This document shows positions 32,101 through 59,185 of a DNA stretch of 64,000 nt, piece by piece. The position numbers were made by a program, and so were the translations under genes. The stretch's first letter is position 1, and every line of letters starts with the position of its first letter. Under the pieces are notes generated by a model that saw nothing but the letters and a program-made list of their open reading frames with translations, was not told where the DNA came from and searched no databases. Source of the stretch: Halichondria panicea (taxonomy: Eukaryota; Porifera; Demospongiae; Suberitida; Halichondriidae); assembly GCF_963675165.1 (NCBI RefSeq), contig NC_087381.1, positions 1,364,001 through 1,428,000 on the forward strand, written 5' to 3'.

Positions 32101-34369
32101 ACTGGTTACCCCATGTGTCTTATTACTCTTTCTCTACATTCTTACCAAATCATTGATTCGATACCTTAGCTCACTACCATACACTACCAATACCCTTCCC
32201 CACGCACATATACACCCCCTCACACACACACACACACACACAGGTGTGTTCCACTCTTCTCGATGAGCTCGCTAACAGACCAACCAGTCTCTCTCGTCGG
32301 AGGCGACAAGCCAGCGGATCCGGTAGTGGAATGAACTCTGACCCCACCACCGAACCATTGAGTTACCTCGATCGTCCTACACAATTCATTGTCATACGAG
32401 TCGGCAATACTTCTACGAACACACCCCCCATACTGGATCTACCTAGCGACCCCCTGATTGTAACTGAAGACACTCCACTACAGTACCAATTACAATACGA
32501 AGACGCCGAAGGTGACATCGTTTCCTTTTATCTAGCCTCCCTTCCAAAGCTAGGTTCGGCTAATCTCACCACCGATGGTCAATTGACCTTTACACCTTGT
32601 GATAATTGTCTTGGAATAGACATGCTGGATATTCTGATTGTAGAGAATCCATTATTAGACACACAAGTGCCTCTATCAGCTGGTGGGCGACTTCTCCTAC
32701 AAATACAAAACAGATTTGATAATCCGGAGGTGTTTTTCTACACAAATGTGACGTCAAGCCAACTCACTGTGCAACGAAGTGTGACCGTGTACATGGATGC
32801 TAACAGGACCTCCCCTGTGAGAGTGGCTAGTATTGCTGGCTTCGATTACGACGGCTACAATGACGATTTATCAATCTCCATACAAAATGGTCTCCAGGGA
32901 GATGCCGGCTCTGAAATATGGTTGGACGTTGTCAACGTACCTGAGAGTCTTCCAATTTCTTTCGCAGACGGTACGAATTCCATCCTTTCTTATGCTGACT
33001 ACATCACTTTCGTGGGGTCATACATCACCTATCTACCCAGAGATCGCAACTTTATCGGAACTGATAGTGTTAGCATAATTGTGCAAGATTCTAATAGTCG
33101 AACGAGTTCAGGGTTAACGATACAAATTGAAGTATTGCCGTCTGTTTGTCAAAATGGTGGTGTGTGTGGCAGAAGTGAACTGGATCCGGACTGCACTGAT
33201 ATTGCAAGGAGGAGGAATGGATCTGAGGGGTACAATTGTTCGTGCCCGAGTGGATTTGGGGGGCAGTACTGTGAAATTCAAACAAATACCCCCACACCAG
33301 AGCCAACAAGAGGTGAGTATAATTATTATAGTGAACTTTTTCCTATCCAATCTCTTATAATTATACATACTTCATGATTCTGCTCTAATTTTGCGCATTC
33401 GAATTAGATACTGCCCTCAGCATGGTTAAATTTGGATTACATGTGCATGCATGTAGCTTCTCACGTGATGTGTGTGTTTATGTGACGATATATATTATTG
33501 GTCTGACCCTGCAGCTTGCCCAGTTGACGTGCCTATAGTTGAATGTGAGGGTGACCCGTGCAGTGATGCAGTCTGCCCCTCCCACCCTACCGCCACTTGT
33601 ACGTCCAATCAGTGTGGAGCCTGCACTGCACAGTGGAGTTTACCGGACGGCACCTCTGTCAGTTGCCACGGTAATTCATATTTGTGTGTGTATTTACGTT
33701 ATATTGTGTGTATGTACCGTATTGGCTAAGTATGTGTAGATTAGCTAAGATAGTTTACAGGTGTTGAGATAATTATAGCATCAATTATTATAGTTGTAAG
33801 CCTTAATTGAAACCACAAGCATGTTATATGGAATCAGAAAATGTAGTAGTAGTATAGCTTAGTATTATGATTTGCATGCTTGGATCTTTCAGTACTTTGA
33901 AATTCTCAATAATAAACTCATGTCATAGCATACCTCCCCCCCCCACGCACACGCACAGCTGACATTGCTGGCATATGCGATTCCCCGGACATTCCCAATG
34001 GAGTGTTCCCGCAAGATTGTGCCACAACCACATGTGCCTGTCCACTCAGTCAGTTCGTATGTCCCCAAGATTCTGTCATCACCGTCACACGTGTCGACGG
34101 ATGCTGTCTCTCTTACGAGTGTGTGTGCCCCGATATTTCCTGTCCGTATCTCATGGAACGTGGTACAGGGCTACAACCAGTGCCGCAATACCGTGGTAAC
34201 CTGTTTCCAGGGCGATGTTGTCCGTCTTATGACTATCTTGGTGAGCCTGGTGTATTAATGTAAGCATGCAGGATCGAGTACATTTCTGATGTAACCTATT
34301 TAGTCCACATGCCGTAGCAATACTTCTACCATTGAAATCACACACATGCATCGATCCTAAAGACACCAT

Positions 34370-38600: not shown

Positions 38601-41600
38601 TATATGCCTCAGGACGCATGCGCAAGCAACGTTTTCATACATGTATGTGCTGCCCTCCTATAATTTTTGTGTCAATGTATTAATTATATCGTGCGCTGTT
38701 CAAAAAGCAACAAGGCATGATAGTACATGGCCTGTAGGAATGTCTTTTCTATTCTACTGACCATGCACTTCGTCGTACGACTATAATTATCGCTAGATTA
38801 TTCAATTACAGACATCGTATAGAAGCTCTGATTTACTGCCTTAAATTGAACGGTACATGTAATATGACATTATTTTTTTGGTTTCTCCCCCTACTTTCTC
38901 CCTCTCAATATAGACATATCCGTAAACACGATATTCAATATCAGTAGAATCACAGCTGGTGAACAGCTGTGCTTGAACATCTCCATTCCCGATGACTCGG
39001 TAGTGGAAGAAGATGAGACGTATCTCTTCCACCGCACCTCTGACTCCGCTCTCGTTACTGACTCTAGGAACCTCGTCACTCTCAAAATTCAAGATGATGA
39101 TTGTAAAAGTGTATAATTACGTGTATTGGCTGCATCTATATTTACTCTGTAAAGGCATAATTATATGAGAGTACGATTTAATTTAGTAAAAATCAATCTT
39201 TTTATAGCGTACGTTATTTTCACAAGTTTTTGTGTATGTATATAATATATAATAGATATCGCATTTAATAACTGCTATGTGGTGTTCTCTTCCCTTATTA
39301 ATTAGCCTACTTCCTCACCCTGCAACTACAAAATGGCACAAGTAGTGTTATATCTGAGGGCAATAACTTCACCTTTGAGGTAGTGTTTGGGGGATTGTTG
39401 GCGCCTGCAGTAAACGTCACTGCTCAGCTGTCTATTGTACAGATCACTCCCGGTAAATAAGGTTATTATATTGATAACAAGAGTAAAAAGATACTCAAGT
39501 AATAATTGATATGCATGCATGTATCTAGTATTCCACTTTTCTGTACTATTTTCTCTGTTCCTTGCAGAAATGCAACCCCCTCGCACACCTGTACAACTTG
39601 GAAGTATAGTGTTCCTCTCTGACATGGCCAGTACTCAAAATCAACTCTTCTCAGCTCCCTCAGGGATGGACAATCTGCTGGAGGGCGATAAATCATTTGT
39701 TGTGGCATTGAAAAATACTAATCAATTTTTGGAGTTCACAGCACTGGATGATGATGGTACGTTGATGTATACTTAGTTGCATGGTAGTTCAGTTGCACAA
39801 AAGAAGTATATTTCATGACTCTTACATCTTCAGTTGGAGTAGTGACAGTGAGTGAAGTTGTTTACAACAGTACCATGGATATTGGCCCTCGAGTAACAGA
39901 GAACACTGTTGTTGTGACTGCCAGTCTCAACATTGGCACAGCGGTGGCCATCACTTATGAGTACACGTGGATCGATGGCACGGTCATAGGTAAGCAAATT
40001 AACGAGAAGATGCAGGTTATAATAATTATTATGGTTATCAGTAGTACTCAGAAGAGATAGCTAAAGTTATAGTCATTGAATTTTTTATTATAAAAGTACT
40101 ATAGAGTTGGCTAGAGGTATGACAGTCCAAATTCAACGATTAATGGTATAAACCTATTTACCTATAATATTATATCTACCTTGTTTACTTGTTCAATTTT
40201 CTTCACCGATCGACAGAGTTCACCTTCAATACCAGTGCTTATGCTTCGTCCATATCACAAACCATATCCTTGGCAGCTGACGGCTATGTGGACGGGATAC
40301 TCAATGTTACTAGACCCCTCACTCTAGTGTCTGCCATTGCCGGACTTAACGTCACTGACAAAGTCATGGTTACCATAGTGATGTACGACCCAGATGGTAA
40401 GAGAGATTAGGTTAAGTATGTTCATACTGGGGAGTTGTGTATATTCAGTCATATTATTTTTGAGCGACCCATTCGTATGACTAATGTGTGTTTGATTTGT
40501 AGCTCAGTTTTTATTCTTCATTCCCCTTCAATGCAGTTATATACGTCACATTCGGACAATCAGACTACACCTTCATTGAGAGTGACTCCATACAGACTTT
40601 TCAGTTTAATTCAACCGGCTCTGTGGGGGGTCCATTCAGTAACTACTCCGTCGATCCACATAGCTACCGCTCATTTAGAGCCGTTTTCGTCGTGGGCACA
40701 ACTACTGGTATAATTGTAGGAGAAGCTCATTGTACTACATTATTATTAGTATGCGGCTATCTATAATAATTATATGATTAAGCTGCATGTCTGATAAAGG
40801 AACAACTCAGTATATACAGGGCCGTAAATAGCTTTGGTTTGCAGGGGTGGCAAAATAACAACTGAAAATTTGTATTAAAAAAAAAAAAAGGTCAACTGTT
40901 ATTTCATATCCTCTGAGTATGGCAACTTCCAACTTTCTGTGGCACCAACTTAGAGCAACTAAAACAAGATTGCTTGAACTAGGAAGGTAACTCATGCTTC
41001 CAGAGTAGCCTCGAGACCAGCCGTTCTTTCAGATAACGAACGGCTGGTCTCGAGGCTACTTCCAGAGGCCATGAGAGGCACAATGGAGCTCAGAATTTTA
41101 CCTAAATAAAGGTCGTCACTCATTCTCAACGGTCAGCATGCGCATCCGATAGCCCTGCCCACATCTCAATTCCATTACAGTATTACTAACGCATTGGGCA
41201 TGTGCAGATCAGTAATTTTGCCAGATCTAGAATGCCATGGGGGGCAACTGCCCCCCCTGCCCCCCCTGCTGTCTACGGCCCTGATATAGCACTGATATAG
41301 CATGCCATGCATGTATGCACTGTCTTATAATATCACCCTCTACTCTTGCCGTGTATATGCACCGCTGTCCAATAAATTCCTCCCTCTCCTGCAGTGCCAG
41401 CTGATGTGATACCCGGCATGAGTGATCAGACCTTTTTTTTTCATAGTGACGCTATTGGGGCTTCTGTGGACACTTACTCATTCACAATTGTTCAAGACTC
41501 ACTTGTCGAGTACGATGAGGAGTTTGCTTTTGCGTTTTCATCCACTGACACCTATGTTGTCTTGGCTGAGACACATATGATTTTCTTCATTGCTAACGAC

Positions 41601-44600
41601 GATCGTAAGTGTTAATCATTCGATTTCGTATCTGTTTCAGGGCATTACAATGTCAGTACATTGCATGGCCATTACGTATTGCTATAGTTACACAAGTGCA
41701 TGGATATAAGATCTACATGCATGTAAAAAGTGCCTCAGGGTAGGTATTCTAGATCCCTAAAATGCACTTCGTATCCCACTAAGTAAAACCTCCAAAACAG
41801 CTAGTGTTCATTGGTTAGCCGGCCTGGAAAAAATATTTGCTTATTTTTTGGTACTGGGAAAATCGTATGACACGATAAGTATACCACATTATGACATACA
41901 TGTCAATGCTATTGCTATACTTGTTCATACAAAGGATGTATTTCCCCCTGACAAACTGACAAACAGTTTTGCCTGTTGCCTTTTGTGAGCCCAACTCGAC
42001 AGTAACGGAGGGAGATGGGTCAGTCACGGTATATCTTGAAGTGGATTCATCCCTAACAGCCATTCCCATTGACCTGGAGATAATCACTCTGCCCATCAGT
42101 GCTACAGGTACATGTTAACACAAAGTTTATTCCTCCAAATATGCTTGTTACGACTTTAGGCAAGAGTCCATAAGTGGAAACGTACAGAAAATTTTCTTTT
42201 GTGTGTCGATCTAAATCATACGGTTGTTTTCCAGCTGGTGATGATTATGAAAACAGGACTTCGACCATTGTGAAAGTACTTCCTGGAGTTAACACCACTT
42301 ATCAGGTCAACTACACCATCGTCGATGACGACGCCCTCGAACTAGATGAGAGTTTCCTGGTAACGTTACAAGTTGCCCCAGGGGACAGCCGGTTTACTAG
42401 CAGAGTTGGAGGCAATCACACAGTAGTTATCACTGATGACGCTTTAGATAGAGGTAAGAAAATATTTTGTTGGGGGTGTGGTGTGGTGCGTACATGTATG
42501 TCTATAAAATGGTTTCATTAATTGATGAGCTTATAATTATATACTATGGTGCATATGTATAAACATATATACTACCACATGATTGATTGTAGAATTGCAA
42601 TTGTGAACTACATTTCATCCTCTAACGCATTTGTTTCCATAGGTAAATAGTATTCCCGATGCACTGCTTAATAATTTGTATACAATTTAATATTCCAATT
42701 ATAGAGGTATCAATTATTGTTTCCAATGGAGACGGAGTTTCGGGGGCTTACTTCAGCGAAGGAGACTTGGTCGACATCAATCTAACACTTGACGTTAAAG
42801 AGTTAGCAGCAAACATCTCGTTTGATGTGTCATTCTCTGATGGTACTGCTCTTCAAGGAAGTGACTATTTTTTACCAGTATTTTTTGTTATATCTTTTTC
42901 ACCTGGTTCCCTTACTTGGACTCAGGAGATTGTAATTATTGATGATGACATCACCGAAGATATTGAGTATTTTTCGTTATATATAACATCACTCGATAAT
43001 AACATCACTATCGTCAATGGGAGCAATATCCAGTTGTTTATTTCCAGTGATGACAGTGAGTTGATTTTCTAAAACAATCTTGCATAAATCAACTACTCTC
43101 CCCCATGATAATTATAGTTTCTGAATTGGTCTTCTTTTCTGACCCTTTGATAACCATCAACGAAAGAGACTCTATCAACGTATCTATACGTATTAACGGG
43201 ATGGCTGAGTCGCCTGACATATTCCAAGGTCTTATCTCCGTTGTTGCCGTGGAAGGAACAGCAATAACAAGTAAGCAGCTAGCTAGCGTGTTTGTGTTGG
43301 TCACTGCATGCAATCATTATTCTAAGTAGTATCGTTCCAGAACTGTTTGTATATATACTTTCCTGCAGATTCGGATTTTACACTACTTTTGTCTGATGTA
43401 ATCTCGCCAACAATGGCCATTTCCGTCACTGTTATGGCGCTTGCAGACACTGTTATTGAGAATGAAGAGAGCCTTGTACTACAACTGAATATATCAGACA
43501 CCTCCTACTTGAGACTTGGAGACAGGAATAACGTAACCGTGGAGATTAAGGACGAGCCTTGTAAGTAAACAGATCAAAATACAAGCTCTCTTCCCAAGAA
43601 AATTATTAGACCTCCTCTACGTACGAAAATTATGTGCGCACAGTTTGTTTATATAATAATTAATGCATCTGTATAACGTTGCTATGGTGCTCCTCCCCCA
43701 CAGTCTCCGTGTCTAGTACGCTGAGTTTTAACGGCACCAATAGCTTCCTAGAGACAGCTAATGTTGTGTATGTCCAAGTTACCCTGGTGTTGGAGAATGC
43801 CACACTGGAAACAGACCTCACGTTTGGTGTGATGGCCTTGGATGAAACTGGAATAATGGGTGTGTTTTGCAGTGAAAGTAAAACTTCAGAGGCTTACTGC
43901 ATACCCACAATAGCACATTGGTGTCCTACAGGACCTTTAATTTGACAATTAAGTTACTTGAATTGGAATGACCAATAAACTAGTAGAAAACAAGGCCTAT
44001 AAAGTATAATTATATGCTCATTCATGAAACATCTCAGTGTACATGCAGAATAGGCTATTATACTTCTGTATATAATAAATTATTATTAGGCATGTGAACC
44101 ATTATGATGTGTATATAACTGTCCCTATAATTATTGCTCATTACAGGCATAGATTTTGAGGTGTTGAACTTCACGGTGACCTTTAGTGGCTCTGCTCTAA
44201 CTCAACGAGTCTACCTGCTTATCTATGAGGACAATCTATCGTCCGATGACAGGCAATTCTCTCTCGCATTCATTACGAATAATAATTTTATAGTCTTCGT
44301 TGGGGGTAATGTGGTGAAAGTTCAGCTTCTTAACGAGGACGGTAAGAGATGAGAGTGGTTACCTTGTATGGCTTTTTCAATACTAATTGTTAATAGCATA
44401 ATTATAGGCAAAAGGAAATTATATAACGTGGATCAATGTTTAATATAAGCGATGTATATTATATGTTCTACATTATGGAAAACCAGTGTTCATTTTCACG
44501 GATAACTGTTTGCTCGATTTTTAAATTTTTCTCACACAGATCCGTGTAAATTTGACCCTTGCGATGAAATGGCCAACTGTACCAGAAACAGTTCTTCAAA

Positions 44601-47600
44601 TTTCATTTGCACTTGCTTACCTGGTTACTCAGGCAACGGCACAGTGTGTATGGACGTTGACGAGTGCCAGTTGCAGGGAACAGGAAATTGTAGCGAACAT
44701 GCTGATTGTAACAACGTTGACGGTAGCTTTACATGCAATTGCACCATGGGATTCACAGGAGATGGATTCAACTGTACTGGTAAGTAACCTCTACAGCATA
44801 AAATCGCATAAATTTTTCTCTCGGCATTAATTTTTACTGATGACTATAATTATAGGAACTCCATGCATATACCCCATTTTTAAACACAAACTATAGTAAC
44901 ATATTGACGAATCCACATCATGCAGTCATTATTATGTATGCAGTATAGAGAGCTTGAATGTTTACACTCCCCTCATGCATGCATGCAGACATCAACGAGT
45001 GTGAGTTGGACACAGATAATAATTGTGACGAGAATGCTGTTTGCAGAAACACTATCGGGGGCTTTAACTGCACCTGTGTCCCTGGCTACAAGAGCTACGG
45101 AACATTGTGTACAGGTAAATCATTGCTTCCGTATAATGATATACTTACACATTATATTGTGCAAATGTCATCTTTAAGTAGTATGCCTTTACTCTGCATG
45201 TAGTTTAGGTTGCTTTTGCCTATACAGATATTGATGAGTGTACAAACGGGACAGATGATTGCCATAACTATGCCACTTGTAACAACACCATGGGCAGTTT
45301 TGAGTGCACCTGTGATGAAGGATATGCTGGAGATGGTGAAACCTGCGTTGGTGAGTATGAAAATCATTGTCAGTTGCATTCAACTAAGAGCTCTTTTATT
45401 GTGGTATATACTAATTAACGTCTATTATCATACTATTTTCATATGCCATTTCGGTTCCTTTAAAGTTAACGAAACACTATAATTATATACGTTCCTGTGA
45501 CATATGGGAACAGAGGAGGTGCCTCGATTAGACTAATTGCCTCTGCAATAACGTTGAGCGTGGGCGGATAATCGAGGCACGCCTGTCGTATTTCCTCTGA
45601 TGTGGGAGTATGCATGCACAAGCATACAAATCTTTGTAGCATAAGACGCCATTTGACTACAGAACTTCTGGGGCCATTCTTAATGTAAATGAATGTGACT
45701 TTTTGTTACACTGGGTACATTATACACTGTTCTCCCCCACGAATAAACAGACATCAACGAGTGTGTGTTGGATACGGATAATTGTGACGAGAATGCCGAA
45801 TGTAATAACACTATCGGAAGTTTCAACTGCACCTGTGACCCTGGCTACATGGGAGACGGAACAATGTGTACAGGTAAAATCATTGCTTACATACGTATAA
45901 TTAGATCATGCATTTAATTATGATTGTGCAGATAGCATCTTTAAAGTAGTTGTGCATGTGCAATGCAGCTATAATTATAGCCTTCACAGTAAAAATGAAG
46001 TACGTGCGCTGAGCACACTAAAATGTTGTGTGTATACCGGTACAGATGTTGATGAGTGTGCACAAGGGATAGATAATTGCCGTGACTACGCCACATGTAA
46101 CAACATCATGGGCAGCTTTGAGTGTACCTGTGATGAAGGATTTACTGAAGACGGTGAAACCTGCATTGGTGAGTATGAAAATCATACTCATATGCCATTT
46201 CAGTTCCTTTATGTCTATGGCATACCAGTTAAAGACACACTATAATTATATACATTCCTGTGACATATTGCTCTATGTGGGAGCAGAGGAGGTACGACAC
46301 GCGTGCCTCGATTAGGCTAATTGATTCTGCAATAGCGTTGAGCGTGGGCGGATAATCGAGGCGTGGTTACGCCCACGCTCAACGTTGTTGTAGAGGCAAT
46401 TAGCCTAATCGAGGCACGCGTGTCGTACCTCCTCTGCTGTGAGAGTATGCATGCACAAGCATACAACTCGGTAAGACGCCATTTTACTACAGAACTTCTG
46501 GGGCCATTCTTAATGTAAATGAATGTGACTTTTTGTTACTGGGTACATTATACACTGTTCTCCCCCACGAATAAACAGACATCACCGAGTGTGTGTTGGA
46601 CACGGATAATAATTGTGACGTGAATGCCGAATGTAATAACACTATCGGAGGTTTCAACTGCACCTGTGTCCCTGGCTACATGGGAGACGGAACAATGTGT
46701 ACAGGTAAAATCATTGCTTACATACGTATAATTAGATCATGCATTTAATTATGATTGTACAGAATGATGTCATCTTTAAAGTAGTCGTGCATGTGCGATG
46801 CAGCTATAATTATACAGTGGAACCCCTCTATAACGGACACCTTTGGGGAATAATGTTTTGGCCTTTATACAGAGGTGGCCTTTGTTAAGAGGTTGTTCTG
46901 TACACAAACTGTTCATTTGGGACCTGGGTGCCTGGCTGTTATAATTATAGCAACTGGCCTTTATTCGGAGGTGGTTGTTAACAGAGGTTCCACTGCATGT
47001 ATATACAGTAAAAATGAAGTGCGCTGAGCACACTAAAATGTTGTGTGTATACCGGTACAGATGTTGATGAGTGTGCACAAGGGGTAGATAATTGCCGTGA
47101 TTACGCCACTTGTAATAACACCATGGGCAGCTTTGAGTGTACCTGTGATGAAGGATTTACTGAAGACGGTGAAATCTGCATTGGTGAGTATGAAATCATT
47201 GTTAGTTGCATTCAACTAAGTGCTCTTTTGTTCTATGTAACTAAAGTTAGTTAAGAATGCCCCTTTTAATTGTTACTCAGTTCACGCATTAAGCGTAAAT
47301 GAAGCCCTAATTGACCACAGAACGTCCAGGGCCATTGTCCACGTGATTGTTTTTCGTATACATTATACGTTGAGTGTAATAATTATGTGTTCTTCCCCCA
47401 TGCATGTAGACATCAACGAGTGTGTGTTGGATACGGATAATAATTGTGACGAGAATGCCGAATGCAATAACACTATCGGAGGTTTCAATTGCACCTGTGA
47501 TCCTGGCTACATGGGAGACGGAACAATGTGTACAGGTATGATATACCCTGAGCTATAATTATACACAAGTGGCCTGCATTCTATCCTAAAAGCATTTTAA

Positions 47601-48671
47601 AGCTTCAAATGCACTTTAGGAAATAACTATATACTCGGAAAACGTTATACTACTATACTGATTTTTGCTTCATTGCTTTGGAGAGTCTTATAATTTTTGA
47701 TTCGATTTGATGAGCTATTATGATCCTGGATTCAACGTTCTTTGTGTCTTTGCAGGAATGATGTTTGGTGACGATCCTCACTTCAGCGTAGTGTTACCTG
47801 GCAGAAAGTTGCTCTGTTTCTCCGTTATGGGACAACATCACCTCAGTTACAATCTCATCAGTAACCCAAACCTACTCATGAATGCCATATTTGCTCCTGA
47901 CTCAAGAAGGGAGGAAGTCACTTGGATTGGAACCCTAGGAATTATTGCAAAGAATACGACAACTGGACACATTCAAACAAAACTGAAATTTGAGGCACTA
48001 CCTTGGAGAGTTTCAATAATCGATAAAGCTACTCTATACCCCAAAAACATCGAAAAGATAGTGATTAAAAACGGAAAGGTGTTGATATCGGAGTCTATGC
48101 CAACAATTGGTTTCAAGTATCCATCAGTTCTCGTCATTCTTGAAGATTCTGGTCTCAAGTTTACGGTCAAGTTTATGAATGAGCATCTGGACATGTTCTG
48201 GCACAACACAGCTCAACAGCACAGCGACTCACATGGGCTTATTGGTAAGCATAATAAAATTAAGCTTTTCCCTCAAGTGGTGTTATAATTAGGTGAGATA
48301 TACGTTTCTCTTTTTCCGCATTGGTCATAATTGTGCTCTATACATGCATGCATGTATTGTATCAATACCATGCAAGTGCCATGCATGTATGTGTACGTGA
48401 CGTGTTTCTTATTGTTACAGGCCAGTTCTTCCGTGATGGAGTTGAGATCGATGAGGTGCGTAAGATCCTGATTATGCCCAGTAAGGAACCTGTCCCAGTG
48501 ATGCGTCGTCCTGTCTGGGCCTTCATGGAGAGAGAGGACAAAGACGACCAGCTTTGCTGGACCGCCATGAATCCTGGATACCAGGGAGAGGGGCTCATTG
48601 ATGGCAAGCCTAACAACTATCTAGTTGACAATGTCCTTGACGATAAGTTTATGTACAATGATGTACTCTAA
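35698..48671 (+). CDS. Gene B: LDLa - Calx-beta - EGF - ITIH C-terminal adhesion protein
   Basis: A predicted 30-exon gene of 1847 codons (5544 nt). After exon 1 every junction is phase 1, so each internal exon is a symmetric module. The ATG at 35698 opens a signal peptide ([20 protein letters not shown]). Order by residue: LDLa ~30-86, LDLa ~87-125, cysteine-rich/EGF-like ~126-165, nine Calx-beta ~166-1231, nine EGF-like ~1232-1601, ITIH-type C-terminal domain 1602-1847. There is no membrane anchor, so the product is probably secreted and calcium-dependent. Exons 1-3: 35698-35953, 36707-36823, 36900-37022; the rest are in the block entries. Genes C and D are close relatives. Sponge aggregation-factor cores also use Calx-beta arrays, so an adhesion or allorecognition role is plausible but inferred. 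Confidence 0.85.
36495..36672. mobile_element. MITE with ACCGTATAG-type inverted ends
   Basis: The left end reads ACCGTATAGTGTGAAATTTTCG; the right end reads CGAAAATTTCGTGCTATATACGGT, its inverted match with a small indel. The element is 178 bp without an ORF and lies in intron 1 of gene B. Its right end is only about 34 bp from the exon 2 acceptor (36706), with a (TA)n run between. Confidence 0.7.
40817..41283. mobile_element. 467-bp MITE with CAGGGCCGTA ends
   Basis: Inverted ends CAGGGCCGTA and TACGGCCCTG are flanked by ATATA on both sides (40812-40816 and 41284-41288). It lies in intron 12 of gene B, has no coding capacity and contains a second, smaller insertion at 41006-41058. Confidence 0.75.
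41006..41058. mobile_element. 53-bp palindromic foldback with 9-bp target duplication
   Basis: Near-perfect palindrome from TAGCCTCGAGACCAGCCG to its inverse, with an ~11-bp loop. It is flanked by CTTCCAGAG on both sides (40997-41005 and 41059-41067). Nested within the MITE at 40817-41283. A relative with the same TAGCCTCGA ends lies at 61619-61695. Confidence 0.75.
45511..45599. mobile_element. Foldback element copy, internally deleted
   Basis: Starts CAGAGGAGGTGCCTCGATTA and ends ATTTCCTCTG in intron 23 of gene B. It is the counterpart of the longer palindrome at 46284-46436 in the duplicated intron 25 and lacks part of the second arm. Confidence 0.65.
46284..46436. mobile_element. Palindromic foldback element, 153 bp
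   Basis: Arms from CAGAGGAGGTACGACACGCG inward pair almost fully with the right arm ending CGCGTGTCGTACCTCCTCTG, around a centre near GGCGTGGTTACGCCC. It lies in intron 25 of gene B and would form a strong hairpin in RNA. Confidence 0.75.
46815..46995. mobile_element. 181-bp MITE with CAGTGGAAC ends
   Basis: Inverted ends CAGTGGAACC and GGTTCCACTG, with internal GGTGGCCTTTGTTAAGAGG-type motifs. Located in intron 26 of gene B and absent from the otherwise similar duplicated intron 24, so it arrived after the duplication. Confidence 0.8.
47756..48671 (+). other. Gene B exons 29-30: ITIH-type C-terminal domain
   Basis: Exons 47756-48244 and 48421-48671 encode residues 1602-1847. The domain opens [10 protein letters not shown], with the cleavage-site motif at Asp1608-Pro1609. 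It continues through LCFSV, SYNLI and [10 protein letters not shown], then HGLIGQFF, and ends LCWTAMN and GEGLIDG with NYLVDNV. These are the landmarks of the inter-alpha-trypsin-inhibitor heavy-chain C-terminal domain (DPHF, LCFN-like, HGLLGQF-like, GEGLIDG). In ITIH this part is removed at the Asp-Pro bond while the new C-terminal Asp is esterified to chondroitin sulfate. There is no vWA/VIT portion here. Whether cleavage occurs in this protein is unknown. Confidence 0.8.
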
Positions 48672-49537
48672 CTTGAGAGACTAAGCTCACAGTCATCTTT
48701 TTTGGTCATTATCACTTTGTCAGTACAATAATTGTCTCGTCATGTTAGTTACGTAAGTACTCCACCATCATAAGTTGTATATAAGAATGCGGTTGTGGAT
48801 GTTACCAAACTGATTGACAATAATTATCTCAGAGAATAATCAACGTCAAAAGTTCTTATGAGAGAGAGGACAAAGACGACGGACCAGCTTTCAATTTTTC
48901 AGACTATACGAAATATTAACTTTCCTCACAGTTATACGGACATACAGAGTCATTTAATTTATAAAAGTCTTGCATCGGATCGATCCATTGCATGCTGTTT
49001 AATCAGCTAAAGTAGTTCCGTATAAGAATGAATCGAATCTGATAACAATATAGAGTCAGTAAGAAAGGCACATCTTATCTATAGCCATAGAGCCATGGCT
49101 TAGATTTATGGAATATAGATAATGATACATTTTATAAATCTCTCCTTAAGGCCACGTTAGTTGCATACTTGTTTCAGATCAACCTCCCTCCTCGGTTTTG
49201 CTCACCTCCTCAATTAAGTCATTATTGCTGATTTCAGCCATTATTTGAGTCTTTTTTTTGGCTGACATTGCATTATTTTACCATGTGCCATGTACAAGTT
49301 GCATTGTGCACCAAAGAGCCAGTGCGTAAAAAAGTTATGTTCAGACTCCGTCCTTTTGTGTATTTTCGTCAGTTAAAAAAACAGGATATGACGTCATCAA
49401 ATAATAGGATAATGGGTAATGAAGACCTCCCTCCCTCATCGGGGTTGAGCTAGTATTCTCATCTGAAACAAGTATGCAACTAACAGTGGCCTAACATTCA
49501 ATGATGTAGCAATATCCCCAAATCTGCATTATTCCAG
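48672..49537. other. Gene B 3' flank with an exon fragment
   Basis: Presumed 3' UTR and spacer. About 190 bp after the stop lies a ~30-bp near copy of part of the last exon (GAGAGAGGACAAAGACGACG at about 48861-48880, followed by ACCAGCTTT). Otherwise AT-rich with no ORF of note. Confidence 0.5.
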
Positions 49538-51215
49538 ACATCACATATATTTTTTACAATCATCCCCGTTTTCCTTACTCTACTTCTGGAAGTGTGGGTG
49601 GGTTAGCTTCCGCTGGTAGACTGGAGTTGTTTTATAATGGTCGATGGACGGCAGTGTGTAATAACAGCTTCAATCCAAATGATGCAGTGGTGGCTTGTCG
49701 TCAGCTGGGGTACTACTCAGTACGGAACAGCTGAAGCGCTAGGGCGAGTATTGCTGCATGGTGTATGACCAATTTCTATATATACAGCTGGTGCAATTGT
49801 ATTTATCCCCCTATATATAGTTTCTCTCAACCATCATCAACCACTCCGACGTGGCTGAACGAGCTTCGTTGCTTAGGAAATGAGAGTAGATTGATTGATT
49901 GTCCTGCTAATACTACCAGAGTTGAAGATTGCCCACACTCACAAAATGTGGCCTTCGTCTGTACTGCAAGTAAGTAATGGATTACATGTATATATACAAT
50001 AGAGGCCAAATTAAAGTTTCTGTTCCGTTTGCGTAAGATAGCTGATTAGATTGCATGCATGCAAAGGCCCGTTTTTCCGCCTACACACATACCACGCTGC
50101 AGTTTCGTGGTTGCATTGTTTACACTCACAGCATGTAGTAATTGCCTTAATCTAATTAGCGGTTTGCGTAAGTCAACACACTATTGCAAGCACATACACC
50201 AAAATATCTGTAGAGTATACGTAAACGGAACATAAACTTTAATTTGGCATCTACTGTACGTGTAGTGTAGTGTGACGTTGCTGCAGTATATATAATGATA
50301 TAATTATATACGTAATGCATGACACTATAATTATTATTATAGCCGGTTTTATAATAATGCATTTTGTGCTGCATTCCTATCAGATGGAAACCTGAGGCTG
50401 ATAGGCAATTCAAGCCAAACAAAAGGCTTCTCTGGCAGACTGGAGGTTTATTACGATGGACAATGGGGGACAGTGTGTAACAGCAGCTTCAGCTCAGGTG
50501 ATGCAAGAGTGGCTTGTCGTCAACTAGGGTTCTTAACCTACGCTCAATACGGAACAGTTGGAGCGCTAGGGTGAGTACTTGCATGTGTAAGCTCATCATT
50601 GAGTAATGTTGGAAACTGTATAAATAGCCTTTCATGCATGACTTGCCATCAAAATTAATCATCCATCTTGAAGAGTTACTTTATGGTATCAATCAGAAAC
50701 TTTAATGCAGTTTCAATGAAATCTCATCAAACTCTTCAACATGGCTGGACAAGCCTCGTTGCTTAGGAACTGAGAGCAGACTGCTCGATTGCTCTCCCAG
50801 CACTATCGGAATTGAAGATTGCAACCACACACAAGATGTGGCCTTGGTGTGCAGTTTTACAGGTAAACATGATCGATTAATGCTGTACAATTGCAAAGAT
50901 TAATGTTGGCTGAGAGGTGCTATATACATAACTCAGAATTCAATCGACGTATTATTGCACTAATTTGATGACCTATAGTTATATTAACAATGCAGTTGTA
51001 GCTATAAAATGTACTTGAAACGTGTGATAGATGCATGCACATTATTTTAGTGACACTTATTTACCTGGCATAATTACTTTTATGCAGTATCTACTTTCTC
51101 ATCCAACATATCAATCAGCATTGGAGTGAGTGTTTCTATCATCATCATAGTTGTAATTATGCAATTGTTGTATGGTTTCATAAGAAGAAGACGTCGCCTC
51201 CTATCCAAGACGTAG
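49538..51215 (+). pseudogene. Damaged gene for a two-SRCR-domain membrane receptor
   Basis: Exon-like blocks: 49538-~49748, 49821-49969, 50384-50570, 50711-50862 and 51088-51215. SRCR-2 is intact over two exons (RLIGNSSQTKGFSGRLEVYY, WGTVCNSSF, ARVACRQLGF, PRCLGTESRLLDCS, CNHTQDVALVC). It is followed by one transmembrane helix (ISIGVSVSIIIIVVIMQLLY) and a short basic tail RRRRRLLSKT before TAG. SRCR-1 has the same structure, but its first exon lacks about 8 nt relative to SRCR-2. That shifts the frame to a stop (VRNS then TGA), and its donor is GC instead of GT. No signal-peptide exon was found upstream. The likeliest reading is a decaying gene. An in-frame donor (GTACTA, 49709 region) could bypass the lesion with loss of ~15 residues. 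Confidence 0.6.
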
Positions 51216-52909
51216 TAATAATGCTATGTCGACAACTGACCTATAAAATAAATAGCTAAAACTATCTTGTTGACAATGTCCTAGGTACAAAGATGTGAAA
51301 TTATACAGTTTTTTGAACATATTTTTTTAGTTATTATCACACTTATCTTATATCTTATTATCACTATAATTAGGATTCATCATGATTGTAAGTATAGCCT
51401 CGTTCCCATGCAGACTGAGTTGTCTCTAAAATAACGCTAGGTCGACTTCGATCAACTCATTGCCGTTAAATCGTTTTCAGTTGTATAAATTGTAAGAATG
51501 TTATAGGTTGTGTATTCATTGGACGTGGCCTCAATATAAACTATAGCGGCTAAACCAACTAGGCTGTGCTGTAGTGATTGTATAGACTTTGTTTGATTGT
51601 GAAAATGGTTAGACCCTGCTTTTTTCCACCTATTATTACATCAGTTATTCTTTAATTCTTGCGTATAATTATTCTCGGATTATTCTCATAAAAAATCTGA
51701 ATTTAAAACGTATAGACATGAGCACACAACTGACACAAGACATAATTAATGTGATTTCTCAATGTGATTTCTCAGTGTTATTTTGCTGACTTGAACTTGA
51801 ACTCACCTTTAGCTATATTTTTTGCCATGAGAACGTCATATACTAAACTTAATGTAATGATCTTACCACATCACATTGTGCCTATAATTAACCCAATTAC
51901 ATAAGACATCAACCCCTATTAATAACTATGCTTCCAAACATAATTTATTAGGGCCTAAGAAGCATCTTGTTGTCATGAGTGCCACACTGCATAACTACGA
52001 AATATTTCCTTGTTTAATACAGTAGTGTGGCTGCACCTGTATTACACTGATAGTGAATGCATGCAAGGCATTTGTTGGCAGTTCTGGAAGCCACCAGCTC
52101 TTGCTCTTGTTAGGGTTGAGTGCTGGGTACTGAACTGGTACTGGATTGTCATGCAAGAGAGCGGTGGTGGAGGAAGTGCATTCTACTGTTGGCTGGTAAA
52201 TGAGTCAACATGCAGACATACAAATTAAGATAATTATCTAGGGTTGAGTGCTGGGTACTGAACTGGTACTGGATTGTCATGCAAGAGAGCGGTGGTGGAG
52301 GAAGTGCATTCTACTGTTGGCTGGTAAATGAGTCAACATGTAGACATACAAATTAAGATAATTATCTAAAGCTAATATCAATATCGTAGCCTATGATTAT
52401 TACATCTAGTAGCTAGAGTTTAGCGTGGGAATGCACGCACACTGCATGTAGTCAGTTATACCACTAATAATTATGTTCGTTGATATTGTCGATCTATACC
52501 CCTATTTTATTAATTAAAACTCAGCAACTTTTGATAGACTCTAGAGAGTGGAAAAATATGAAAAGAATTACAGTACTAGTTGGCATAACCTATCCTGTTA
52601 AGGTTCACTAATGACGCCAAATATTGCTATTATTGACATACGCGCGTATGATAATCATATTAAGAAGACAAACTACTGTTTTAAAACTTAAAATGCAATA
52701 ATAAGAAGGGTTGCTTTCCTCTGTCCAGTATGAGAAGTATTTTATTATGAGATGACTGATAAGTTGTATCCTATATGTGTCAACAACACGTACTGTTTGA
52801 CTGTCACTATTTAAGGGTGCTGTTTTTTCAGAATCATCAGTATTTTACACCGATTTCTCAGTCTGCTATACACGTTTCTATTCGAGAGGTGTATATAGAG
52901 CTACTGAAA
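51216..52909. other. Intergenic region upstream of gene C
   Basis: AT-rich, with no convincing gene. It includes a 128-bp tandem duplication (separate entry). The promoter and 5' UTR of gene C presumably lie in the last few hundred bases; no clear element is visible. Confidence 0.5.
52113..52368. repeat. Perfect-length 128-bp tandem duplication
   Basis: Two copies, 52113-52240 and 52241-52368, begin GGGTTGAGTGCTGGGTACTG and differ at about one base. The near identity marks a very recent duplication. Confidence 0.95.
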
Positions 52910-55900
52910 ATGTTAAATAGGTTCTTCTTCCTGAAGGTGTTTAGCCTTATTTTGAGTCTAATCACCTGCTCTACAGCACAAGCCCCAGCAACTCCAGGGC
53001 CAATTGCTTTCACCAGAGATTGTCCAGACAACTTGTCCTGCCCACGTGACGATGGTACATTGCAGTGCTACTCAAGATCACAGCTTTGCAATGGAAACCA
53101 AGACTGTGTGGGAGGCTCTGACGAGGGACTCAATTTGAACGCATTGGACTGTGAGTGACTTCAGCTGTTCATTTGAGCAATTTATACTATTGTGCATGTA
53201 TGTAATACAATGCTTCACATGCACAGGTACTGGAATTTTCACTGGAAGAACTACTGCACCAATCGCTTCCTTTGTGTGCGGTGCTGGAGTTGTTGTGGAG
53301 CTGGACGAGCTGTGTGATGGTGTTGATGACTGCGGTGGTGGTGATGACGAAGAAACTGCTCTTTGCGAGAGTGAGTTTCATTGTGCAAGCTTATTTATTA
53401 TAAAAAATTATGTTCGTTGCAGACAAGTGCTTGTTTCCATACTACGGGTCTTGTTCCTTTTCAAGAGAATGTATCTTTACTGACTTGGACTTGAATTGTG
53501 GTTTGTGTCGTCCTGGCTGGGCTAGAAATCCTGCTGTCCCATTTGGAGAATGCTTATGTAAGTTTTCTGTCTACTGCATGCAGTCCAGCTCACCGTAATA
53601 ATTGCACATGTTATGCAGTTGCTCGGTTCCGTTTCTCACTGACCACTTTCTCTGTGGATGAGAATAATGGTCCACTCGTTGGATCTATCACTCTGGACAC
53701 AGCTGGTCAACTTGATCGGGCCATTTCAGTAGTCGTTCAGACTAATCCTACTGGAAGTGCAATTCGTACGTACATGTGCATGCATGCATTATAGACACTC
53801 CTCAGTAAGTATTTTCTGATTGCAGCTGTCTTACTGCATGAATACTCCTATTTGGCATGATCATGCAATTTGTTCCACCTATTTCAAGCCACTATGTAAT
53901 TATATCTCTCAGCAAGAGTTCTCAGTGATATAGCTATTATAATTATTATACATAATTATAGCTGTAGCAAAATAGATGATGACCTGCAAGTCATGCATGT
54001 TTCTTGTATATTTTATTATGGCTGTGTATAATTATGAGTTGTGTCTTTCCCTCACAGCTTTTACTGACTACACACCCATTGTGACCACCCTCCTCTTCCC
54101 AGTAAATTCCGTAGGAGGCACTACGATCAATTTCGAAGTCCCCATTATTGATGACCCCAATTGTGAAAATTCCGAGACATTTGGTCTGTCTGCTACTATA
54201 GTAGACAACCTCGGAAACTTCACCGCTGGTGGAGATACAGCGACTGGTGTCATCATTGATAATGATAGTAAGTATAATTATAGAGAATTAAGCTAGCAAT
54301 TGTGGATAATTATAATAACTACAGTGAAATAATTATAGCTTGACTTCATCATGATGCAGTATAATTACACATGCATGCAGTACAAGCTTTGCTATTACAC
54401 GTTCACTTTTCTTGAACAGATTGCTTCATTGGATTTCAATTTCCTGATTACACTGTGCCAATGGAAGGAATCACATACATGGACGTTTGTCTGGTTACAA
54501 CTGGGATTGGGCAACTTACCTCTTCTTGTCAAGTACAAGTTAGCTTGGCACAATCTTTGTTTGGCCAGCTTCCTTCCGGCAAGACACAAGCAATGAGTAA
54601 GTTCTCTGTATAATGGGTAGTGTACTTGAAATAAAGGTTAAATGTTCACTTCAGCACTTGAAATAATGGTTGCATATTCGCTTGAGCATTAAATATGGCT
54701 TATTAACACTCTATTGTAGTTCCTGGAGATGCCACTCTTTTGAACCCAATGGACTTCACTTTCGGCCCTGGTCAAGCAACAATACAGTGCCTCAACATAC
54801 AAATTGAGGCTGACGCAATTGCTGAAGGATCTGAAGTGTTCCAAGTAAACGTAAATGGCCTTGGCTCTGGTGGATCTCCTTGTGATATTGATCCGAGTAC
54901 TGATGAATCACAAGTGTGCATACCAAGTGGAGGTATAATGAAGATTGCGTATTGAGTTATAACCGTGAGTTTGTTATTTCCCTTACAGATATTGAGTTTC
55001 AGTTCTCTGAAAATGTGTATAATGTTGTTGAGGGTGGTCCTGGATTTGTATTGGTGTGTGTTGACTTGATAAATGGCTTCATTGCTGTTGATACACCCAT
55101 TACACTGACCACTAACGACATTTCTGCTAATGGTGAGTTAGTTGTGACTCTGTTTCCATGATTTCACTGTATTTTGTTTTATACAGCTGACATTCCTGAT
55201 CAGTATGGATGTATCGACTACTTCAGTGCACCTAACCCCAACCCCATTATCTTCCCTGCTGGGACATCACCTGGAGTTGCAGGCGCTACACAGTGCAGTA
55301 GTATCACCATCAACGACGACAATTGTTGTGAGCTCACTGAGAGCTTTGGTGTCACCGCTTCCTCTAACGATCCTGATGTAATGTTTCCTAACGGAGATTT
55401 TGCCATTGTCAATATTGAAGATAACGATTGTGAGCGAATTAAATGTCCTGCAATTATTTTTGCTCAAATACATGTAGAGTAAAATTATAAGTTTAATGCT
55501 CAAATTATTGTAATTAATAATATACATTTTCCATTCTTTAGTTAAGATATTTGGATTCATTCCAACATCTGTGACTGTGCCTGAAGGCGTTACTGCTGAG
55601 TTGGCAATACAGATAGTCAACAACGTGGTGGTGACAGCTGCTGTTTCACCTGTCACTGCAACCTATAAAATACTTCCTGGTGGAACTGCAACAGGTGCAT
55701 AAGAATAAAATCATAGGAAGCTAGTCTAGAGTCTTAATTGTTTGATAAGAAGTTGTTTTTCGATGAAAACATAAATTCCATAGCAACTATAGCGGGGAAA
55801 ATTATCAGTATACGAGGAAGAATTTTGATACAACTTTCATTTCATGTGTTGCAGGTGGTGGAGTGGATCATAATGGTGTTGATGGAACAGTGGTGTTCCC

Positions 55901-58900
55901 ACCCGGATCTGGACAGGGTTCTCAACAACCGATCTTCATTCAAACATTCGATGATAATAATAATGAACCTACTGAGACTATCTTAATAGAGGGATGTGCT
56001 GATGCTCCAGACACGTTTGCTCCAAATATGGCTACAGTTGTTATTATCGATGATGATGGTGAGAAATCATGAATTCTAATTCACTACCATTAATTACTTT
56101 GTACTGTGCAGTGTGTGAGGTTGGATTTGAGATGAGCACTTACTCTGTTCTGGAGAGTGCTGGAATGGTCGAGTTCTGTCTGGTCAAACTTAATAATGTT
56201 CAACTCTCTGGACCTGTCGATGTGCTGATATCCACGTCTGCCTCTCCTACTACTGCTGACAAAGACCCTGCCACTGGTAAGTGAAGAACAATCATGTATA
56301 AATGCATGTGTGTTTTTACAAACTCTAAAAATAAAAACAGCTCCCTATAATTATATAAATGTGCTTAGCTATACATAATAAATTATTATGTACAATTAAA
56401 GCAAGCCAAAAGCATTTATATGAAACATTTTTGCAGCTGGCTCTGACTATGTTGTGAAAAATTCCGATGTCATACAATTTACAACTGGCTCTACCCGTGA
56501 ATGTCATATTTTCACCGTTATTGACGACACTAATGATGAGCGTACTGAAAACTTCATGTTGTCTGCCGTTAGCAGTAACAGCGCTTCTCTTGCAGTGACT
56601 GGAATAACTAGTGCAGAAGTGTGCATCCAAGACAATGACTGTAAGTTAAGACAAAGAAATGCGTGGACACTAATGTAGTTACCGTATTCTATTCTCCTAT
56701 ATTAGTGATCGTATTCGAATTCGATATGTCTGTATACACTATTGAAGAGGGAGGACCTGCCATTCAGGTTTGTATCAACCTTGTGGAGGGAACTCTCACT
56801 AGAGATGTATTTGTCGATGTGGATAATGTGATTGGACAGGGAACTGCCACACGTAAGTGCAAGGCTATAATCATGATGTAATAAGTCATATTGGCTACCA
56901 TATTCACATTCACCTAGCCTGCTAGTACGTACATGTATACATGTATATAAATAGTCACTATAATTGCGTATATTCCTTACAGTTAACATGGACTACGTTG
57001 TGGTCAACCAACCCCTTCTCTTCCCCTCCGGCTCATCCTCTGGTCCACCACCTTCCCAGCAGTGCTTCCCACTCCAGACAATTGATGACTTCAATGTTGA
57101 AGACACAGAATTCTTTTTCCTCTCTGCTACCTCTCCCGATCCAGAAGCTGAGTTCACACCGGGGGGAGATACTGCACGTGTGGACATCATCGATAACGAT
57201 CGTAAGTTTCTTTAAATAGGAATTGCTGGCCAGACTCAAAATACACAGATAAACAGACTATAAAATCAACCGACTATTATATAACTAGTAACCGTCCATG
57301 TGCATGCCTCGAGTTAAAATGATTGGCTTGAAAAAGAGAACAGGTCAACTTATGAATAATTACGTTATATCTTCATGCTTATTATTATAATTATACTCAA
57401 ACTTTTCCTCACAGTGGTACCTATCAGGATTGTGCCTGCTCCCGGCCTTGGCATACCTGACTTCACCATCCTTGAGTCGAATGGTCCACAACAAGTGTGT
57501 GTTGAAATCCAAAATCCCTTTGGACAAGACCATCTGGAGAAGTCAGTTTTTGTTACCCTCAGTACTGCTGACGGCACTGCTACGAGTAAGTCAAGTCACA
57601 GCACATTGTTTAGCTTATTTATATGTAGCAACTTAAAAATTATTCCTCAATATCTAATTCGCAATTAGCAATAACCTGTAATCTTTTGGCTTTATCATCA
57701 CAGGTCCTGCTGACTATTCCGCAATATTTCAGCAATTCATCTTTACTCCTGCCAATCAGAATGATCAGCTCTGTGTTAACATTCCCATCATTAATGATGT
57801 TATCTGTGAGGGTGATGAGGTGTTCACTGTCAGCCTAACTTCAACTGACAATTGCGTTAACATCCTAATGCCATCTCAAGGATCTGTCACAATTGTTGAC
57901 GATGATGGTAAGTTTTCTTAGAATTGGAAGTAACTAAATACTATGTTCCCTCCTTCTATAGTTGCTGTGGTTGGCCCTGATCTGGGTGTGGTTCACTACA
58001 ATGTGACTGAGCGTCTGGATGATGCCGTATGGATCCCTATTCGTCTCAATGGACAGAAGGGACCTGGACGTCAGTGTGTTGTGGAAGTGAGGACCATGGA
58101 TGGAACAGCCAGTGGTAAATATTGTTACAATCAACATCTCTCAGTGAGATAATTATATTGAAATCTTATACCCACCTTCTCCTTTTTCACAGCTGGAATG
58201 GACTACACTAGCATGATGACAACTCTTACCTTTGACAATGCTAACGACCTTCAGACGTTCCATGTTGAGATTCTTGATGACACAATATGCGAGGGCCATG
58301 AGTCTTTCTCTGTTTACCTCAGTACCTCTAGCGAAGGGTGTCAAATCTCTGAAAGTGAGCTGATTGTTTACATCTGGGACGATGAGCTGCACTTTGGTGA
58401 TGATCCTCATTTCAGTATTGCTCTTCCCGGTGGCAAGCTTCTCTGCTACACTGTACAAGGAGAACACGGATTCTCTTTCAACCTAATCAACAACGAAATG
58501 ATTGTCATGAACTCCAAGTTTGTTCCTGATGCTCGTCGATCTGAAGTGACTTGGCTCGGCTCCATGGGAATCATTGTCCAAGACAGCCAATACAAGGGAT
58601 CCAACAGCACCAAGCTACGATTTGAATCCTCTGAGAAAAAGATCTACATTGATGATAAAGTGTCTCTCGAAGCAAAGAATATTGAAAAGCTTACTTTCTC
58701 CAATGGTAAACTTAGCATATCTGAGGCCCCTCCAGCAACTGGATTCAGATATCCTTCCGTAATGGTCGACCTCCAAGATGTGGAGATCAGCTTCACAATC
58801 AAATTCACCAACCAACATTTGGATATGTACTGGCACAGCACTGGAAAGAAGATCATTGACTCTCATGGACTAATCGGTAAGTAATTGGATAATTAAATGC

Positions 58901-59185
58901 AAAGAGAAGTACTTCATGTTTCAATTGCTGTATACAGGTCAATTTTTCCGTGATGGAGTTGAGATTGATGAGGTGCGTAAGATCCTGATTATGCCCAGTA
59001 AGGAACCTGTCCCAGTGATGCGTCGTCCTGTCTGGGCCTTCATGGAGAGAGAGGACAAAGACGACCAGCTTTGCTGGACCGCCATGAATCCTGGATACCA
59101 GGGAGAGGGGCTTATCGATGGCTCCTACTTTGACTACCTTGTCGACGATGTCATGTCCACTGACTTCAAGTTCAACAAGCAATAA
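52910..59185 (+). CDS. Gene C: LDLa - Calx-beta - ITIH C-terminal adhesion protein
   Basis: A predicted 20-exon gene of 1401 codons (4206 nt), all introns phase 1. Start at 52910: MLNRFFFLKVFSLILSLITC then STAQ, a signal peptide. LDLa 1 in exon 1, LDLa 2 in exon 2 (CDGVDDCGGGDDE), cysteine-rich module in exon 3 (KCLFPYYGSC ... NCGLCRPGW), eight Calx-beta ~174-1155, ITIH-type domain ~1156-1401. It lacks the EGF array of gene B. Exons: 52910-53150, 53227-53370, 53423-53557, 53619-53765, 54058-54267, 54420-54596, 54720-54932, 54989-55132, 55187-55429, 55542-55694, 55855-56058, 56112-56276, 56437-56640, 56706-56852, 56983-57201, 57415-57585, 57704-57907, 57962-58114, 58193-58876 and 58938-59185. 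Probably a secreted adhesion or matrix protein. Confidence 0.88.
53619..58390 (+). other. Gene C: eight Calx-beta domains, each split over two exons
   Basis: Exon pairs 4-5, 6-7, 8-9, 10-11, 12-13, 14-15, 16-17 and 18-19 each encode one Calx-beta. The first exon carries the strand with Glu (YxVxEGG, VCVxL). The second begins at the conserved GxDY, runs through FxPG, CxxIxIxDD and ExxExFxLS, and ends IxDND. Extra paired cysteines (for example CLVTTG with QC or EC in the partner exon) recur and are not typical of cytosolic Calx-beta. They suit an extracellular, disulfide-bonded setting. Confidence 0.85.
58376..59185 (+). other. Gene C exons 19-20: ITIH-type C-terminal domain
   Basis: Encodes WDDELHFGDDPHF with Asp1162-Pro1163 as the ITIH-like cleavage site. 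It follows the last Calx-beta directly with no EGF spacer. Landmarks LLCYTV, EVTWLGSMGI, HGLIGQFF, LCWTAMN and GEGLIDG match gene B. Residues up to HGLIG are roughly half identical to gene B, whereas the last exon is almost identical until the final ~20 codons. Confidence 0.82.

What the first reader, a model, noticed from the sequence alone, without database searches (positions are those of the whole stretch)
47756..59185. Calx-beta adhesion proteins end in an ITIH-type domain with an intact Asp-Pro-His-Phe site: possible covalent coupling to acidic glycan
Genes B and C carry FGDDPHF at the junction between the adhesion array and the C-terminal domain, with all other landmarks of the ITIH C-terminal domain (HGLIGQFF, GEGLIDG). 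In vertebrate inter-alpha-trypsin-inhibitor heavy chains the Asp-Pro bond is cut here and the freed Asp is esterified to chondroitin sulfate, then transferred to hyaluronan. If it works the same way in these proteins, a Calx-beta core would become ester-linked to a glycosaminoglycan. That would be a direct route to the proteoglycan-like adhesion particles known in sponges. The usual VIT and vWA parts of ITIH are missing, so this looks like an independent use of the domain. I do not know this architecture as described; the domain may also overlap a sponge-specific domain already named under another label.
Basis: partly seen in the sequence, partly recalled or inferred. Interest (0 to 1): 0.82.

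Follow-up and report, generated by a model that had tools for sequence, protein, structure and literature searches.

The report
Self-cleaving tail of sponge adhesion proteins
Two sponge adhesion genes end in a domain related to the tail of a vertebrate blood protein family that is cut at an Asp-Pro bond and attached to a sugar chain; the cut site is conserved, so the sponge proteins probably cut themselves too, but attachment to a sugar is unproven.

Summary
Genes B and C both end in a 246-aa domain with FGDDPHF at its start, leaving exactly 239 residues after the Asp-Pro bond; human HC1 and HC2 pro-domains are 239 and 244 residues (PMC7170535, passages). The only significant Pfam hit is ITI_HC_C, E 1.3e-4 and 3.9e-4, but below the curated cut-off of 27 bits. 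Ten of 11 copies of this half in the same genome keep Asp-Pro-His; 0 of 3 divergent relatives do. One low-confidence AlphaFold model aligns best to VWD domains (top 15 rows, Z 4.6-6.9), the class in which GDPH cuts itself (PMC10880436); a second model agrees only weakly, and profile comparison with VWD fails. Most likely the precursor self-cleaves at Asp-Pro. Ester coupling to a glycan stays a hypothesis: glycosyltransferase families of the chondroitin/heparan type are present, but no VIT match lies within 170 kb of a copy and no Link module was found. The gene cluster looks like a sponge aggregation factor locus; the domain may already be named 'Wreath' (recalled; that paper was not held).

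The parts
35698..48672 (+). Gene B region: possible start with signal peptide ([18 protein letters not shown]...), LDLa-like cysteine-rich exons, Calx-beta exons, calcium-binding EGF exons, then the C-terminal domain. Start and splicing upstream of 47756 not settled.
   Evidence: Frames (signal peptide and LDLa by eye); Pfam Calx-beta and EGF_CA on pieces, where the one LDLa-like piece given had no hit
47756..48244 (+). Gene B C-terminal domain, exon 1: MMFGDDPHF...SHGLIG
   Evidence: own-genome search
47770..47784 (+). Asp-Asp-Pro-His-Phe of gene B; predicted scissile bond between the second Asp and Pro
48421..48672 (+). Gene B C-terminal domain, exon 2: [10 protein letters not shown]...GEGLIDG...NDVL and stop
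52910..59185 (+). Gene C region: possible start with signal peptide (MLNRFFFLKVF...), LDLa, 8 Calx-beta stretches, C-terminal domain
   Evidence: Frames (signal peptide by eye); Pfam Calx-beta E 1.7e-89, 8 stretches, and LDLa over its cut-off, on a hand-joined model
58193..58876 (+). Gene C exon holding the second half of the last Calx-beta and exon 1 of the C-terminal domain (from about 58384)
58399..58413 (+). Asp-Asp-Pro-His-Phe of gene C
58938..59185 (+). Gene C C-terminal domain, exon 2, ending KFNKQ and stop

Best explanation
Genes B and C (and a near copy of C's domain about 11 kb downstream) are secreted Calx-beta adhesion proteins of the sponge aggregation factor type. Their last 246 residues are a divergent relative of the ITIH C-terminal domain, probably with a VWD-like beta-sandwich. 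The conserved Asp-Pro-His at its start most likely cuts itself in the secretory pathway: the Asp side chain attacks its own backbone carbonyl and breaks the Asp-Pro bond. The product is an adhesion array ending in Asp plus a 239-residue, 27-kDa fragment with its own two cysteines. Shown here: the motif, its conservation, the weak but consistent family relation and the length. Inferred: the fold and the cleavage. Open: whether the two pieces then stay together without a covalent bond (the 27-kDa piece as assembly subunit) or the Asp is passed to a glycan hydroxyl as in inter-alpha-inhibitor.
For: ITI_HC_C is the only significant Pfam hit for B and C. It is hit by 7 of 8 paralogues given, with no other family reported (the call does not say which member missed, probably the one given without exon 2), and by 2 of 2 members of a more distant sponge group, which matches the paralogue profile at hhalign E 4e-11. 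Gly, Asp, Pro and His of the motif are invariant in the 8 aligned paralogues, and 10 of 11 copies keep DPH. 239 residues after the cut against 239 and 244 in HC1 and HC2 (PMC7170535, passages). VIA-align of the better model has VWD proteins in all top 15 rows, Z 4.6-6.9 over 116-131 residues, next row 3.6 (row 14, Cypridina luciferase, counted as VWD from recall). PMC10880436 (passages): GDPH of an FCGBP VWD cuts itself, Asp and His mutants do not, and ITIH3/5/6 carry GDPH between the first two strands of a predicted domain with VWD topology.
Against: Pfam score under the curated cut-off; no paralogue reaches it, the best being 22 bits. AlphaFold confidence is low (mean pLDDT 47.9 and 56.6, only 2 sequences, exon 1 only). 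Foldseek gives nothing at E <= 0.001 for either model, no VWD in the 50 rows shown for the first, and one (RGMB, rank 32) in the 50 shown for the second. In the second VIA-align run VWD rows (Z 3.1-5.0) are tied with unrelated ones, and Z under 8 can be a common arrangement. hhalign against five of this genome's VWD domains finds no relation. The residue before the scissile Asp is Asp in B and C, not the Gly of GDPH, whose cis peptide bond PMC10880436 links to cleavage. Four relatives have lost the motif (one DSH, one SPRF, two GDPL), so the domain can exist uncut. No protein data.
Confidence: 0.68

Rival explanations
1. ITIH-like covalent coupling: the freed C-terminal Asp of the adhesion array is esterified to a hydroxyl of a chondroitin-type or other acidic glycan, and the 239-residue domain is released. 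(A special case of the best explanation.)
For: Same Pfam family, same pro-domain length, only two cysteines in the 239-residue piece and none in the few residues before the cut, so no local disulfide to hold the halves (the contrast with mucin-type VWD is recalled). CHGN gives 11 matches, six of them at E 5.5e-66 or better; Xylo_C and GT64 also match, so glycosaminoglycan-type glycosyltransferase families are present.
Against: No VIT or vWA in the gene C model; none of 9 VIT matches lies within 170 kb of a copy; no Link module found, though controls were silent too. PMC10880436 describes plain hydrolysis at GDPH. g580, a sea urchin glycan carrying the sponge glyconectin epitope, is reported as not degraded by hyaluronidases, chondroitinases or heparinases (PMC8271808, passage). 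CHGN members need not make chondroitin.
Confidence: 0.25
2. Cleaved but not separated, as in VWD domains: the residues just before the cut stay as the first strand of the sandwich, and the 27-kDa piece is the assembly subunit that joins arrays into a particle. (A special case of the best explanation.)
For: VWD-like fold ranking. Cleavage stabilises the FCGBP VWD domain (PMC10880436, abstract and passages). The domain follows many different N-terminal parts (Calx-beta, Ig, EGF, Sushi, Ser/Thr/Pro linker), as expected of a common hub. Recalled: the Microciona factor has separate ring (MAFp3, about 30-35 kDa) and arm (MAFp4) proteins from one precursor.
Against: Only about four residues (MMFG, LHFG) lie between the preceding domain and the DD pair, and there is no cysteine there.
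Confidence: 0.4
3. Uncut structural domain: the motif is a fold landmark and the protein stays whole.
For: Three divergent relatives lack DPH and one near-duplicate reads DSH. GDDPH in B and C lacks the Gly before the scissile Asp.
Against: DPH is kept in 10 of 11 core copies although the residue before it varies (Asp, Gly or Ala).
Confidence: 0.25

Closest known systems
ITIH heavy chain C-terminal domain (Pfam PF06668 ITI_HC_C)
   Same: Only significant Pfam match; Asp-Pro-His at the N-terminal edge; 239-residue tail; C-terminal position
   Different: Below the curated cut-off; behind Calx-beta or EGF instead of VIT-vWA; no Link-module partner seen; bikunin not searched
VWD domains with GDPH self-cleavage (FCGBP, MUC2, MUC5AC, BMPER, SUSD2)
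   Same: Asp-Pro-His motif; one low-confidence model aligns best to VWD structures
   Different: No Pfam VWD match, no hhalign match to five VWD domains of this genome, no cysteine at the motif, an extra part of about 80 residues after HGLIG
Sponge aggregation factor family (Calx-beta, von Willebrand and Wreath domains; Grice et al. 2017, recalled, text not held)
   Same: Calx-beta arrays with a common C-terminal domain, clustered copies, shuffled domain content
   Different: Identity of this domain with the Wreath could not be tested; glycan and particle not examined

Membership tests
ITIH heavy chain | ITI_HC_C over Pfam's curated cut-off (27 bits) | tested here: not met
   22 and 20.5 bits, E 1.3e-4 and 3.9e-4; 7 of 8 paralogues hit, best E 1.3e-4, so none over the cut-off
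ITIH heavy chain | VIT and vWA domains before the C-terminal domain | tested here: not met
   Gene C hand-joined model: Calx-beta and LDLa only; nearest of 9 VIT matches to any copy 173 kb away. Gene B scanned in pieces only
ITIH heavy chain | Asp-Pro-His at the start of a removable tail of about 240 residues | tested here: met
   Motif; 239 residues in both against 239 and 244 (PMC7170535). Removal itself not tested
ITIH heavy chain | Ester bond from the C-terminal Asp to chondroitin sulfate | not testable with these tools
   needs protein chemistry
VWD domain | Pfam VWD match | tested here: not met
   No VWD row at E <= 10 for B or C; hhalign to 5 sponge VWD domains E 0.058 over 16 columns, probability about 1%
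VWD domain | VWD fold | tested here: inconclusive
   Top 15 VIA-align rows are VWD proteins, Z 4.6-6.9; second model mixed; pLDDT 47.9 and 56.6; Foldseek no E <= 0.001
VWD domain | GDPH motif | tested here: inconclusive
   DPH kept in 10 of 11; the residue before it is Asp in B and C, Gly in the two C1 copies, Ala in the C12 copies
Sponge aggregation factor | Calx-beta array in a secreted protein | tested here: met
   8 Calx-beta stretches in gene C; secretion signal read by eye
Sponge aggregation factor | Cluster of similar genes | tested here: met
   Domains of B, C, a near copy of C and a fragment within 27 kb of contig C5
Sponge aggregation factor | Wreath domain | not testable with these tools
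   Defining paper not held
Sponge aggregation factor | Proteoglycan particle with ring and arms | not testable with these tools
   needs biochemistry

The most novel reading that the evidence does not exclude
Sponge aggregation factors are built by the same chemistry as vertebrate inter-alpha-inhibitor: an Asp-Pro self-cleavage that releases the ITIH-like tail and ester-links the Calx-beta arm through its new C-terminal Asp to an acidic glycan. The covalent protein-glycan transfer of vertebrates would then descend from a cell adhesion and self-recognition system at the base of animals.
Probability: 0.22. Interest if true: 0.88.

Novelty: new variant of a known kind. Interest (0 to 1): 0.6.

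Why it matters
How the parts of the sponge aggregation factor arise and are held to acidic glycan is an old question (stated from recall). A conserved Asp-Pro-His site at the junction gives a precise, cheap test (one N-terminal sequence, two point mutants). It would tie sponge cell recognition to the ITIH and VWD self-cleaving families and place ITIH-type tails in a setting without VIT-vWA.

Tried and rejected
Sequence search of solved structures with gene C's domain and with the 8-member profile: no relevant match. Viral contigs: four pattern matches, no relative. PF06668 search of the whole genome: no match at E <= 0.001, with silent controls, probably because the domain is split over two exons. 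hhalign against sponge VWD: no relation. Foldseek on both models: nothing at E <= 0.001. Rejected: a canonical ITIH gene, since VIT and vWA are absent from the gene C model and no copy lies near a VIT match. Rejected: chance motif, given expectation 0.01 and conservation in paralogues. A stricter GDPH pattern has no match in the window, as both genes read GDDPH.

Literature: (Wreath, aggregation factor, MAFp3, Calx-beta) found 0 papers; (ITIH heavy chain with sponge) found 1, on a sea cucumber; none of the 25 listed of 38 papers held the ITIH heavy chain term. Searches were seen as listings; 26, 27, 28, 31, 32, 63, 68, 69, 81, 82 and 83 as passages; 33 as one section; 84 as abstract and outline. 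The library holds open-licence papers only, so this does not show that the idea is unpublished.

Full report
The window lies in a 131-Mb genome in 39 contigs. Its gene content (Calx-beta, LDLa, EGF, SRCR, many short introns) fits a demosponge; this is an inference and the species was not determined.

The observation. The DDPHF pattern occurs twice in the window, at 47770 and 58399, against 0.01 expected. Both stand at the start of a 246-residue C-terminal domain encoded by two exons, with the intron splitting the same Gly codon in both genes. Gene B reaches the domain from a calcium-binding EGF exon; gene C reaches it directly from the end of its last Calx-beta. From the Pro to the stop both have 239 residues, 27.4 and 27.3 kDa, with two cysteines.

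Family. Pfam's only significant match is ITI_HC_C, E 1.3e-4 for B and 3.9e-4 for C, below the curated cut-off, over profile positions 102-166 and 104-166 of 189. Of 8 paralogues given 7 match it, none over the cut-off, and no other family is reported; the one that missed is probably the one given without exon 2. A second, more distant sponge group at C5:7.15M and 7.17M matches the paralogue profile at hhalign E 4e-11, and 2 of 2 members pick ITI_HC_C, best E 0.0021, with one further weak row (Levi_coat, E 0.029). A short protein at C2:708k, by eye little more than a signal peptide and the domain, gives ITI_HC_C at 0.0057. So the relation is weak for each but consistent. The landmarks DPHF and GEGLIDG lie outside the Pfam-aligned stretch; their presence in ITIH is recalled, except GDPH in ITIH3, ITIH5 and ITIH6 (PMC10880436, passage). 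HC1 and HC2 have pro-domains of 239 and 244 residues that are removed when the chain is attached to chondroitin sulfate (PMC7170535, passages).

Conservation. The genome search returned 27 matches. Reading them, I count 11 copies with the N-terminal half of the domain, one of them a truncated fragment; 10 keep Asp-Pro-His and one near-duplicate has Asp-Ser-His. In the 8 copies that I aligned (the Asp-Ser-His one left out) the Gly, Asp, Pro and His are invariant, while the residue between Gly and Asp is Asp, Gly or Ala. Of three divergent relatives none keeps the motif. The N-terminal neighbours vary: Calx-beta, Calx-beta with Ig, Calx-beta with EGF, Sushi with Calx-beta, EGF, or only a signal peptide and a Ser/Thr/Pro-rich linker (largely by eye; Calx-beta, Ig and Sushi confirmed by Pfam on sample pieces).

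Fold. Only contiguous window stretches were folded, so models cover exon 1 with two sequences. Mean pLDDT is 47.9 (gene C first) and 56.6 (gene B first). Each has 12 strands and no helix of four residues or more. VIA-align of the better model put VWD proteins in all of its top 15 rows: MUC5AC, MUC2, VWF, FCGBP, RGMB and Cypridina luciferase (its VWD domain is recalled), Z 4.6-6.9 over 116-131 residues, then a drop to 3.6. The poorer model gives many VWD rows at Z 3.1-5.0 mixed with unrelated ones, and an unrelated row ties for the top. This is suggestive, not proof; Z under 8 may be a common arrangement, and a profile comparison with five VWD domains of the same genome found nothing. It fits the remark in PMC10880436 that the ITIH domain shares topology with VWD.

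Mechanism. PMC10880436 (passages and section 2.6) shows for an FCGBP VWD domain that GDPH cuts itself; Asp-to-Ala, Asp-to-Asn and His-to-Asn prevent it, and a cis Gly-Asp bond favours attack of the Asp side chain on its own carbonyl. The sponge copies keep Asp, Pro and His; B and C have Asp before the scissile Asp. I infer self-cleavage with moderate confidence. What follows is open. For retention speak the VWD-like fold and the use of the domain as a common terminal part. For release and coupling speak the ITIH relation, the equal length, and the lack of a cysteine near the cut that could bridge it. Glycosyltransferase families of glycosaminoglycan synthesis are present: 11 CHGN matches, six at E 5.5e-66 or better, Xylo_C, GT64; which polymer they make is unknown. 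Against coupling: no Link module found, with silent controls; no VIT match within 170 kb of a copy; and the report that g580, a sea urchin glycan with the sponge glyconectin epitope, resists glycosaminoglycan-degrading enzymes (PMC8271808, passage).

Place among known things. Aggregation factors are proteoglycan-like complexes coded by a highly polymorphic gene family (PMC8066720, passage). From memory, Grice et al. 2017 describe clustered genes with Calx-beta and von Willebrand domains and a new Wreath domain; that paper was not held. The domains of B, C, a near-identical copy at C5:1433838 and a fragment at C5:1438370 form such a cluster. I therefore expect the gene type, and perhaps the domain, to be already named. 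The part that may be new is the tie to ITI_HC_C and the conserved self-cleavage site at the arm-tail junction.

Noticed in passing
window 49510-51212 (+): A gene with two SRCR domains (Pfam E 8.9e-25 and 2.1e-22) and, by eye, a membrane helix lies between genes B and C. An SRCR/short-consensus-repeat protein has been proposed as sponge aggregation receptor (PMC4557014, passage), so a receptor-type gene may sit inside the adhesion cluster.
   Followed up: partly
window 48450-48595 and 58967-59112: Exon 2 of genes B and C shares a run of 146 identical bases while exon 1 is 62.6% identical (303 of 484 aligned bases), which suggests recent gene conversion.
   Followed up: partly
G000 C5:1433838 and C5:1438370: A copy of gene C's domain, 98.6% identical in DNA over exon 1 (492 of 499) against 93.0% in the adjoining Calx-beta part (172 of 185), and a truncated copy that keeps FGDDPHF.
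   Followed up: partly
L026, L027 (C5:7.15M and 7.17M): Proteins with, by eye, Sushi- and VWD-like stretches (ETCGLCGTQ) followed by a divergent copy of the domain in which DPH has become DPL.
   Followed up: partly
L025 (C2:708k): A short, apparently secreted protein made of little more than a signal peptide and a divergent copy of the domain without DPH.
   Followed up: partly
L031 (C12:511k, - strand): A VIT gene, with a vWA-like stretch by eye, and no C-terminal ITIH-like domain noticed in the fetched 6.5 kb.
   Followed up: no
window 46044-46165 and 47060-47182: EGF exons of gene B recur in very similar form about 1 kb apart (read by eye), a likely recent duplication inside the gene.
   Followed up: no
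window 23146-24303, 26457-29333, 32244-33374 (+): Three of seven long open frames upstream of gene B match Pfam: fibronectin type III (two frames) and Big_9, a bacterial-type Ig domain.
   Followed up: no
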